This document shows positions 11,743 to 14,498 of a DNA stretch of 64,000 nt, piece after piece (the first letter of the stretch is position 1; each line of letters begins with the position of its first letter). This stretch comes from Sphingopyxis fribergensis. Its GTDB lineage: Bacteria; Pseudomonadota; Alphaproteobacteria; Sphingomonadales; Sphingomonadaceae. The stretch is from contig NZ_CP009122.1 of the NCBI RefSeq assembly GCF_000803645.1, positions 3,696,501 through 3,760,500 of the forward strand, written 5' to 3'. The notes beneath the pieces are model-generated. The model ran no database searches. It saw only the letters and a list, made by a program, of their open reading frames with translations, and had not been told where the DNA came from. A program made the translations under genes and the position numbers.

Positions 11743-13406
11743 GTCGTTTCCAGCAGCCGTTCGGCCTGCGCGCGCGCCTCGGCGGTGACTTCGGCGCCCG
11801 ACAGCATGCGCGCGATTTCTTCGCGGCGACCGGCTTCGTCGAGCGCATGGACGCTGGTGCGCGTAACCGTGCCTTCGCTCGACTTGGCGATGATGAAATG
11901 CGCGGCGCCCTTGGCCGCGACCTGCGGGCTGTGGGTGACGGCAAGCAATTGCTTGCCCGCGCCCGCGAGCCTGGCGAGGCGCTCGCCGATCGCGCTGGCG
12001 ACCGCGCCGCCGACGCCGCGATCAATTTCGTCGAAGATGATCGTGTCGGCCCCGCCCTCTTCGGCGAGCGCGACCTTCAGCGCGAGGATGAAGCGCGACA
12101 GTTCGCCGCCCGATGCAATCTTGGCGAGCGGGGCGAAGGGCGCGCCGGGGTTGGTCGAGATCAGATATTCGACGCGGTCCATGCCCTCCGGCCCCCAACG
12201 GTCGGCGGGGAGGCGCTCGACGAGCGTCTGGAAGCGCGCGGCGTCGAGTTTCAGCGGCACCAGTTCGCCCGCGACCGCGGCGTCGAGGCGGGTCGCCGCC
12301 TTGGCGCGCTGGTCGGACAGCGCGGCCGCGGCGTGGGTGTAAGCGGCGGCGGTTTCGGCGACCGCGGTTTCGAGCTTGGCGAGCCCTGCGCTACCGCCCT
12401 CGATCGCGTCGAGCCTGGCGGCGAGCGTCCCGGTCAATTCGGCGAGTTCGTCGGGCTGACACCCATGTTTGCGCGCCATCGCGCGCAGTTCGAACAGGCG
12501 CGTCTCGGTCGCCTCGAGCCGTTCGGGATCATATTCCATCGCGCGCGCGGCTTCGTGCAGCTTGCTCTCGGCCTCGTCGGCCTCGATGATCGCGCGGTCG
12601 AGCCCGGCAAGCGCCTCGGCAAGCAACGGATGATCGCCCGCAAGCCGGTCGAGCCGCCGCGCCGCGCCGCGCAATTGTGCAGGGCCGCTATCGCTGCCCT
12701 CGAACGCTTCCATGATCGCGCCGAGGTCGCCCGCGACCTTCTCGCCCTTTTGCATCGTCGCGCGCGCTTCGGAGAGTTCGGCATCCTCGCCGGGCTGGGG
12801 CGCGAGCGTCTGCAATTCGGCGACGCAATGCTCGAGCCATTCGCGATCGCGTGTCGCTTCGGAAATGGCGGCGCGCGCGGCGGCGAGCCTGTCCTCGGCT
12901 GCGCGCCATGCGGCATGCGCCGCTCCCACGCCGCGGGTATCGGCGCGGGCATAGGCGTCGAGCAACGCGCGGTGCCCCGCGGGCGCGAGCAGGCCGCGGT
13001 CGTCGTGCTGCCCGTGAATTTCGACGAGATAGGTGCCGACCTCTCGCAGCAACGCCGCCGAACAAGGCTGGTCGTTGAGAAAGGCACGGCTGCCGCCGTC
13101 GGCCTTTAGCGTGCGGCGGATCAGCAGCGGTTCGCCACTTTCGAGGGCAATGTCATTCTCGGCGAGCAGCGCGGCGAGCTTCGTCCCCGGTGCCGGCGCG
13201 ACAAAACTCGCGGTCACTTGGGCCTTGTCGGTCCCCTGACGCACCAGCCCATTGTCGGCACGCGCGCCGAGCGCGAGGCCCAGCGCGTCGAGCAGGATCG
13301 ACTTGCCCGCCCCCGTCTCGCCCGTCAGCACGCCCAGCCCGGCCTCGAAGTCGAGGTCGAGCCGTTCGATCAGAACGATGTTGGCGATGGAAAGCGCCGT
13401 CAGCAT
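11739..13406 (-). CDS. recN: DNA repair ATPase RecN
   Basis: SMC-like ATPase for double-strand break repair, 555 residues. Walker A GETGAGKS at 29-36, a long helical middle (about 160-360), the signature around GGELSRFILALKVAL, Walker B DTIIFDEIDRGVGG and the H-loop in TAVTHSPQVA-like LLAVTHSPQ. The start MLTALSIANIVLIERLDLDF is the standard RecN N-terminus, so the ATG at 13406 is secure. No normal Shine-Dalgarno precedes it: the 32-bp arm of a large palindrome ends two bases upstream of the ATG. It belongs to the bamD-recN-ligA group and overlaps the next gene by 4 bp. Confidence 0.97.
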   Translation of the reverse strand: MLTALSIANIVLIERLDLDFEAGLGVLTGETGAGKSILLDALGLALGARADNGLVRQGTDKAQVTASFVAPAPGTKLAALLAENDIALESGEPLLIRRTLKADGGSRAFLNDQPCSAALLREVGTYLVEIHGQHDDRGLLAPAGHRALLDAYARADTRGVGAAHAAWRAAEDRLAAARAAISEATRDREWLEHCVAELQTLAPQPGEDAELSEARATMQKGEKVAGDLGAIMEAFEGSDSGPAQLRGAARRLDRLAGDHPLLAEALAGLDRAIIEADEAESKLHEAARAMEYDPERLEATETRLFELRAMARKHGCQPDELAELTGTLAARLDAIEGGSAGLAKLETAVAETAAAYTHAAAALSDQRAKAATRLDAAVAGELVPLKLDAARFQTLVERLPADRWGPEGMDRVEYLISTNPGAPFAPLAKIASGGELSRFILALKVALAEEGGADTIIFDEIDRGVGGAVASAIGERLARLAGAGKQLLAVTHSPQVAAKGAAHFIIAKSSEGTVTRTSVHALDEAGRREEIARMLSGAEVTAEARAQAERLLETT

Positions 13407-13408
13407 AA

Positions 13409-13673
13409 GGGGTCCGAATCCACTATTGATGCGGTCGAGGCGTCAAAATGGCAAAGGGATCGGAGTGAGATGGCTGCCGCGGGTAGCGGCGCTACCCGCA
13501 AAGTCAGCTCGCTTCGAGACCGAAGCCATTTTGACGTCCCTTCGGGATTTGGGCGATTTGGCCCATTGCGGCGTCGGCGGCGCTGGAAATATCGTCATAT
13601 TCCTGCACTTCGCCTCCTAGCACTGGGCCAAATCGCCCAAACCTCGACCGCATCAATAGTGGATTCGGACCCC
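13409..13673. repeat. 265-bp branched palindromic element between bamD and recN
   Basis: Perfect 32-bp inverted arms at 13409-13440 and 13642-13673 enclose two further hairpins. Hairpin 1 has 12-bp arms (13441-13452 with 13525-13536) and holds a 9-bp stem with a 3-nt loop at 13479-13499. Hairpin 2 has 18-bp arms (13548-13565 with 13624-13641) and holds a smaller GGAA/TTCC stem near 13587-13605. The whole forms a three-way junction. It fills nearly all of the bamD-recN spacer, ends 2 bp from the recN ATG, and covers the ribosome-binding region. No open frame encoding a recognisable protein is inside. It could be a MITE-like element or a structured RNA; flanks show at best a 2-bp AA duplication. 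Confidence 0.9.
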
Positions 13674-13703
13674 AACGCCCTTACCGCAGAACAAAGGCAG
13701 AAT

Positions 13704-14498
13704 CTATGCGCTCGGCGCGTTCTTCTGCATCAGCTTGTAGGCGCGCTCATACCATTTATTGCCCGGATAGTTGGCGCCCAGCACCGCGGCCGACTTCTTC
13801 GCCTCGGACGGGATGCCAAGCGCGAGATAGCATTCGGTCAGGCGATAGAGCGCCTCGGGCGCGTGGCTCGTCGTCTGGAATTTGTCGACGACTTCGCGGA
13901 AGCGGATCGATGCGGCGAGCCAGTTCGAGCTGCGCTGGTAGAAACGGCCGATTTCCATTTCCTTGCCGGCAAGATGGTCCTGCACGAGGTCGACCTTCAA
14001 GCGCGCGTCGGACGCATAGCGGCTGTCCGGGTAGCGGCGGATCACTTCGCCGAGCGCGGCGCTGGCCTGCTGGGTGATCTTCTGGTCGCGGGTGACGTCG
14101 CTGATCTGCTCATAAAAGCTGAGCCCGATCAGATAATAGGCGTAGGGCGCGTCCTTGTTGCCCGGGTGGATCGCGAGGAAACGCTGCGCCGCCTCGATCG
14201 CCGGGGTATATTCGCGGTCCATATAATAGCTGAACGAGCTCATCAGCTGCGCGCGGCGCGCCCAGGGCGAATAGGGGTGCTGGCGCTCAACCTCGTCGAA
14301 CAGCGCGGCGGCGAGGCCGTACTGGCCGCGGTCGAGCCGGTCCTGCGCCGCGCGGTAGAGCGTGTTGACGTCGCGCGCGACGTAACGCGTATCCTTCTTC
14401 ACATTGCCGCCCCCGGCACAGGCTGCCAGCATGGGGGTGATCGCGAGTGCGGCGGCGAGCAGGCGCATGGTCGCGCGCGAGGGGGCATATTGAGTCAT
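13704..14498 (-). CDS. bamD: outer membrane protein assembly lipoprotein BamD
   Basis: Essential lipoprotein of the BAM complex that folds beta-barrels into the outer membrane. 264 residues from the ATG at 14498; a shorter start at 14468 is also possible. Lipobox LAAC (MLAACAGGG) near residue 31 marks lipidation. TPR repeats follow, with LYRAAQDRLDRGQYGLAAALFDEVERQHPYSPWARRAQLM and DSRYASDARLKVDLVQDHLAGKEMEIGRFY, which is diagnostic. It is the first gene of the leftward group; the large palindrome follows 30 bp after its stop. Confidence 0.95.
   Translation of the reverse strand: MTQYAPSRATMRLLAAALAITPMLAACAGGGNVKKDTRYVARDVNTLYRAAQDRLDRGQYGLAAALFDEVERQHPYSPWARRAQLMSSFSYYMDREYTPAIEAAQRFLAIHPGNKDAPYAYYLIGLSFYEQISDVTRDQKITQQASAALGEVIRRYPDSRYASDARLKVDLVQDHLAGKEMEIGRFYQRSSNWLAASIRFREVVDKFQTTSHAPEALYRLTECYLALGIPSEAKKSAAVLGANYPGNKWYERAYKLMQKNAPSA

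What the first reader, a model, noticed from the sequence alone, without database searches (positions are those of the whole stretch)
13409..13673. Three-way branched palindrome that embraces the recN start region
The sequence shows perfect 32-bp outer arms, with two separate inner hairpins (12-bp and 18-bp perfect arms), one of them carrying a further 9-bp stem. The right arm on the minus strand ends 2 bp from the recN ATG and covers the place where its ribosome-binding site should be; no Shine-Dalgarno is visible outside the arm. It sits inside the bamD-recN-ligA transcript. Either a MITE-like mobile element has taken over the recN leader, or this is a structured RNA controlling recN, for example a DNA-damage or stress switch. 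Both are inference.
Basis: partly seen in the sequence, partly recalled or inferred. Interest (0 to 1): 0.75.

Follow-up and report, generated by a model that had tools for sequence, protein, structure and literature searches.

The report
Mobile palindrome lodged before recN start
The palindrome before recN is one copy of a jumping-DNA family found in many sphingomonad genomes, and its copies tend to sit right before gene starts in one orientation, perhaps because one strand can carry ribosomes into the gene behind it.

Summary
It is a copy of a dispersed family of about 266 bp, matched in 49 of 60 genomes sampled from the genus and in 18 of 96 sampled genera of the family, own genus included. 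Ends, TA target duplication and empty sites make it a MITE sharing its ends with an IS5-family element in the same genome. The outer arms evolve in concert without wobble preference (tree: 351 double Watson-Crick changes, 66 to G·T, 66 to A·C), which fits template switching between arms rather than RNA selection. The left end lies within 25 nt of a start codon in 51 of 114 cases, the right end in 4 of 70. A minus-strand mini-ORF stopping at the left end is intact in 47 of 51 start-adjacent copies and 89 of 121 others. I infer that it couples translation into the next gene. At recN this ORF stops 36 nt early, and the native Shine-Dalgarno lies across the element. Hairpin 1 evolves like a plus-strand RNA, which is unexplained. 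A recN damage switch is not supported.

The parts
13409..13673 (-). MITE copy; the minus strand is the one carried by a bamD-recN mRNA
   Evidence: copies and empty sites
13409..13440 (+). left outer arm, 2 nt from the recN start codon
13642..13673 (+). right outer arm
13441..13536 (+). hairpin 1; in the family its pairs evolve like a plus-strand RNA
13537..13547 (+). mini-hairpin TCCC-TTC-GGGA
13548..13641 (+). hairpin 2
13443..13598 (-). leader mini-ORF, 51 codons plus TGA; ends 36 nt before the recN ATG (earlier than in most copies)
13613..13618 (-). AGGAGG, Shine-Dalgarno-like, 14 nt before the mini-ORF ATG (a long spacing)
13679..13682 (-). native recN Shine-Dalgarno core AAGG, now across the element from the ATG
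13404..13406 (-). recN start codon

Best explanation
A miniature inverted-repeat element, mobilised by an IS5-family transposase into YTAR sites with a TA duplication (well supported, short of a transposition assay). After insertion its long arms are kept alike by template switching between them (inferred from the pattern of change). Selection then decides which insertions survive: next to a start codon almost only the orientation that puts the minus strand in the mRNA remains (shown). My reading is that the minus strand holds a leader ORF that ends at the element's left border, usually in TGA followed in frame by the TAR of the target duplication; ribosomes translating it open the hairpin and couple into, or reinitiate at, the gene just behind (inferred). 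At recN the leader ORF ends 36 nt before the ATG, so coupling there would act by unfolding the hairpin, or recN uses its old Shine-Dalgarno brought near by the folded stem.
For: MITE. Arms: searches (351 double Watson-Crick changes; single changes 66 G·T, 66 A·C, 73 other; 21 shared loci: 40 double; singles 15 G·T, 22 A·C, 16 other), one locus with the core clearly inverted in place. Orientation: (left end within 25 nt of a start 51 of 114, right end 4 of 70; within 4 nt 25 against 1; at 26-60 nt 20 against 15; tandem genes 69 against 25). ORF: (intact 47 of 51 start-adjacent, 89 of 121 others, p 0.007; with divergence in the model p 0.0018; within 4 nt 24 of 25; copies at least 12% diverged 25 of 27 against 16 of 28). 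Coupling is known to work at short stop-start distances (PMC12548453, passages).
Against: recN, the copy in hand, is the one exception among the 25 closest copies (ORF stops early). No sign of peptide selection (synonymous fraction 0.208 against 0.276 expected). The deficit of stop-creating changes in the ORF frame (14 against 39.8) is matched in another minus frame (11 against 31.2), and a branch-randomised test is weak (14 against 17.6). Among 29 family-wide and plasmid copies 14 keep the frame open to the border, 7 are broken and 8 lack the ATG. AGGAGG lies 14 nt from the ATG, further than usual. Hairpin 1's plus-strand signal is not explained.
Confidence: 0.48

Rival explanations
1. Shine-Dalgarno hop: the folded element loops out of the mRNA, so the native Shine-Dalgarno on one side comes to its normal distance (7 nt at recN) from the ATG on the other side.
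For: At recN the looped-out spacing is 5+2 nt, as in empty sites. A Shine-Dalgarno core lies within 20 nt across the element in 9 of 25 closest copies against 9 of 58 controls.
Against: Predicts no orientation rule, but 25 against 1 is seen. Outer stems are no more intact at the closest copies than elsewhere (1.44 mismatches against 1.49-1.98, p 0.59) and their mismatches are not of the kind tolerated in the mRNA strand (A·C 16, G·T 14). 16 of 25 lack a recognisable core across.
Confidence: 0.2
2. Outward promoter: the core carries a promoter that reads out of the left end and replaces the promoter cut off by insertion.
For: Would give an orientation rule; Correia elements carry promoters (PMC10969869, passages).
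Against: The asymmetry stops at 25 nt: at 26-60 nt 20 left against 15 right, at 61-150 nt 25 against 27. No sigma-70-like site was found in 13300-13800 (a simple scan). It does not supply a Shine-Dalgarno at 0-4 nt.
Confidence: 0.1
3. Ordinary MITE without function; the orientation rule has a cause not seen here, for example harm done by plus-strand RNA next to a start.
For: Most features are those of a MITE; copies far from starts are common (63 of 114 left-end cases).
Against: Elements are more alike than their flanks at 17 of 21 shared loci, and at recN 97.4% against 87.8% on the recN side. ORF integrity depends on position.
Confidence: 0.17
4. A structured RNA that switches recN in response to damage or stress.
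For: Position in the recN leader; strong conservation among the three species that have it.
Against: 28 of 30 recN loci compared lack it; 3 of 80 genomes have it. Relatives sit before unrelated genes. No Rfam match at gathering score in 8 copy-bearing loci; four sub-threshold hits at the window.
Confidence: 0.03

Closest known systems
MITEs of IS5-family elements
   Same: Short, non-coding for transposase, ends shared with a resident IS5-family element, TA duplication.
   Different: 32-bp arms far longer than the shared ends, near-constant length (185 of 217 copies exactly 266 bp), folded core, orientation rule at start codons.
Correia repeat elements of Neisseria (PMC10969869, passages seen)
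   Same: MITE often upstream of genes; inversion of the element has been reported.
   Different: Correia elements are known for promoters; here the asymmetry acts only within the translation-start zone. No sequence comparison was made.
Rickettsia palindromic elements and enterobacterial RU repeats with ORFs (PMC10969869 passages; PMC2759123 abstract)
   Same: Small palindromic mobile repeats that contain open frames.
   Different: Those are described as fused into proteins; here the frame ends at the element border and no copy of 145 lay inside a called gene.
Leader-peptide reinitiation and translational coupling (PMC4833913, PMC12548453, passages)
   Same: A short upstream ORF whose stop lies close to the next start codon.
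   Different: Here the leader ORF would be carried by a mobile element.
Template switching between inverted-repeat arms (PMC8604942, abstract and passages)
   Same: Arm homogenisation and spacer inversion.
   Different: Described there for short repeats in yeast; here 27-32 bp arms around a 200-bp core in bacteria.

Membership tests
MITE | Dispersed copies with terminal inverted repeats and no transposase | tested here: met
MITE | Target duplication and empty sites | tested here: met
   19 of 20 aligned relatives show CTAG where the filled site has TA on both sides; 28 of 30 recN loci lack the element
MITE | Shared ends with an autonomous element | tested here: met
   own-genome IS with TA|GGGTCAGGACCCATTGAT ends
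MITE | Observed transposition | not testable with these tools
   needs a mobility assay
IS5 family (partner element) | Transposase matches an IS5 model | tested here: met
   NF033580: second frame 163.6 bits (cut-off 110), first frame 109.8, just under
Structured RNA controlling recN | Conserved at recN across relatives | tested here: not met
   3 of 80 genomes
Structured RNA (outer stem) | Compensatory change with G·U preference | tested here: not met
   66 G·T and 66 A·C; 15 and 22 at shared loci
Structured RNA (hairpin 1, plus strand) | Compensatory change with G·U preference | tested here: met
   middle 99 against 11, base 22 against 4; 54 against 5 at shared loci; no mutational strand bias
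Known Rfam family | Match at gathering score | tested here: not met
   0 in 8 copy-bearing loci; window hits all below gathering
Translational coupling leader | Open leader ORF ending close to the next start, kept where it matters | tested here: met
   weak at recN itself, where the gap is 36 nt
Translational coupling leader | The ORF is translated | not testable with these tools
   needs ribosome profiling or fusions; indirect sequence tests were not specific
REP/BIME with RAYT transposase | REP-associated tyrosine transposase | not tested
   not searched; the partner found is an IS5-type element

The most novel reading that the evidence does not exclude
A mobile element with two-faced strands: one strand is a portable translational coupler that makes insertion between a Shine-Dalgarno and its start codon survivable, while the other strand encodes a selected RNA hairpin; template switching keeps the arms perfect and can flip the core, so orientation is put to selection again.
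Probability: 0.33. Interest if true: 0.8.

Novelty: new variant of a known kind. Interest (0 to 1): 0.6.

Why it matters
If the coupling reading holds, a transposable element has solved the problem of landing on a translation start by carrying its own leader ORF. The family also offers many independent loci for studying arm homogenisation in bacteria. And it warns that covariation in a palindromic repeat is not proof of RNA: the wobble test separates two regimes inside one element.

Tried and rejected
Minus ORF as a conserved protein: rejected (the stop deficit is not specific to the frame). Known RNA family: none at gathering score. Strand bias of mutation as the cause of the hairpin-1 signal: rejected (unpaired core C>T 0.0156, G>A 0.0171). 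A pair of ends 2.6 kb apart in G038, first taken for an autonomous element: the stretch reads as ordinary genes. Tighter outer stems at start-adjacent sites: not found. Literature: searches aimed at this repeat listed no paper whose title or shown abstract describes it; one search found none at all, and the others showed only the top 10-15 of 153-226 papers. One search for MITE with translational coupling gave none. Most subscription journals and bioRxiv are not held.

Limits of my counts. Gene neighbours come from my own codon-usage caller trained on six genes of the window, not from annotation; 16 of 188 representatives were left undetermined. Copies were reduced from 350 to 217 distinct, 184 loci, 188 locus-by-orientation representatives. 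The copies came from capped lists ranked by similarity to three queries, so they are not a full census. One search used 73 of 103 copies after removing near-duplicates. In one search one gap-rich and one identical copy were dropped (168 to 166). One search used 21 of 24 shared loci, one pair each, identical pairs left out. The first ORF count (45 of 51 against 88 of 121, p 0.029) was redone because the start search missed real ATGs. P values are nominal; several hypotheses were tried on the same copies.

Mended on checking: I first read four of 24 shared loci as inverted in place. One search shows that only one (L106/L121: arms 27 of 27 identical, core 98%) is clear; at the other three the arms differ (15-21 of 27), so separate insertions into the same site are possible.

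Full report
WHAT IS THERE. Bases 13409-13673 form a closed structure: perfect 32-bp arms, hairpin 1 (13441-13536), a mini-hairpin (13537-13547) and hairpin 2 (13548-13641). It lies between bamD and recN, two bases before the recN ATG on the minus strand.

IT IS A MOBILE FAMILY. The own genome has four copies; the other three are 74-79% identical to this one. 49 of 60 sampled genomes of the genus, own included, match at 1e-8; with another copy as query 62 of 80 match at 1e-30. In the family 28 of 249 genomes in 18 of 96 genera match, own genus included. Six plasmid records of Sphingopyxis, Novosphingobium and Sphingobium match. Of 217 distinct copies 185 are exactly 266 bp.

EMPTY SITES. Of 30 recN loci compared, own included, two carry the element and 28 do not; 23 of the 28 have a 30-58 nt bamD-recN gap and 5 have other inserts. 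Three of 80 genomes carry this copy, all at recN. At another own-genome copy 70 of 80 genomes matched the joined flanks; of the best 20 aligned, 19 show CTAG where the filled site has TA on both sides, and one has neither. Over 188 representatives 99 keep TA on both sides, 27 on the left only, 22 on the right only, 40 on neither.

THE PARTNER. Four places in the own genome match an IS end TA|GGGTCAGGACCCATTGAT...; at three of them both ends are found 845-846 bp apart, at the fourth the scan found one. Its two frames match the start and the end of the IS5 model NF033580, the first just under its cut-off. That the IS427 group of IS5 uses TA targets and a frameshift is recalled.

ARMS: DNA RATHER THAN RNA. 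Over 29 diverse copies the fold has 59 of 96 pairs with changes on both sides, 343 such cells against 85.6 in shuffles. The kind of change differs by helix. On a tree of 166 copies the outer stem shows 351 double Watson-Crick changes and single changes of 66 to G·T, 66 to A·C and 73 to other mismatches. RNA selection would favour G·U. At 21 loci shared between species there are 40 double changes and 53 single ones (15 G·T, 22 A·C, 16 other). At one locus the core is clearly inverted in place; at three more it is reversed but with different arms. Homogenised arms and spacer inversion are the marks of template switching (PMC8604942, abstract and passages).

HAIRPIN 1: RNA-LIKE, UNEXPLAINED. Its middle stem shows 99 changes to G·T against 11 to A·C on the plus strand, its base 22 against 4; at shared loci 54 against 5 for the whole hairpin. 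Hairpin 2 shows no such preference (30 against 42; 9 against 8). No mutational strand bias accounts for it. So the plus strand seems to fold under selection, although recN mRNA carries the minus strand.

WHERE COPIES SIT. None of 145 lies inside a called gene. Ends coincide with stop codons on both sides alike (left 22 of 58, right 44 of 102), as a TA target predicts. Starts differ: the left end is within 25 nt of a start codon in 51 of 114, the right end in 4 of 70; within 4 nt 25 against 1; at 26-60 nt 20 against 15. The arms are palindromic, so insertion itself should not favour an orientation; selection afterwards is the likely cause (inference). In the 25 closest cases no Shine-Dalgarno lies between element and start; in 9 of 25 a core lies within 20 nt across the element, against 9 of 58 controls. 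In a small family-wide set 3 left ends and no right end were within 25 nt of a start.

THE LEADER ORF. On the minus strand an ATG in hairpin 2 opens a frame that usually runs to TGA-CCC-TAR at the left border. It is intact in 47 of 51 start-adjacent representatives and 89 of 121 others (p 0.007; p 0.0018 with divergence in the model); among copies at least 12% diverged 25 of 27 against 16 of 28; in the closest group 24 of 25, recN being the exception. Start-adjacent copies are on average more diverged (0.130 against 0.100), so this is not youth. Coupling is reported to hold from -4 to +25 nt in one study and to fade beyond about 30 nt in another, while a hairpin-unfolding case holds at +62 nt (PMC12548453, passages). 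Against it: no peptide conservation, a stop deficit not specific to the frame, a weak branch test, and 8 of 29 family-wide and plasmid copies without the ATG and 7 with a broken frame.

recN ITSELF. The mini-ORF here has 51 codons and stops 36 nt before the ATG. The native AAGG lies across the element, 5 nt from its border, with TT on the other side; looped out, the spacing is 7 nt, as in empty sites. The element is 97.4% identical to that of G077 and 94.4% to that of G056, while the recN side is 87.8% and 84.1%. Over 21 shared loci elements are more alike than their flanks at 17 (means 0.908 and 0.855). Resident copies therefore seem constrained; whether that serves recN cannot be told from sequence.

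VERDICT. A MITE, with near certainty. Template-switched arms are likely. Translational coupling is the best single account of the orientation rule, at about even odds. A recN damage switch is unlikely.

Noticed in passing
L288, L299, L301, L302, L303 (G038, G057); L285 (G058): Solo palindromes TAGGGTCAGGACCCTA, one in a short tandem, scattered like REP units and made of the same terminal sequence as the MITE and IS.
   Followed up: partly
L160, L164, L155 (bamD-recN gaps): Another repeat, rich in CGCCCCCGCGAAGGCGGGGGC-type palindromes, occupies the same gap in other species.
   Followed up: no
L256/L360/L375, L366/L372, L055/L272: Three loci where species carry the element at the same place in opposite orientation but with different arms; inversion plus divergence, or separate insertions into one site.
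   Followed up: partly
hairpin 1 of the family (window 13441-13536): Plus-strand RNA-type covariation in place at shared loci (54 G·T against 5 A·C single changes) suggests a selected hairpin on the strand opposite to the downstream gene.
   Followed up: partly
L054 3182-3954 (Sphingopyxis indica plasmid pMC4): A different IS5-type transposase gene lies directly beside a copy of the element, followed by a further arm-like fragment.
   Followed up: no
L180, L260, L165: A sub-group of copies has a 15-bp insertion at the mini-hairpin loop, which keeps the minus-strand frame.
   Followed up: no
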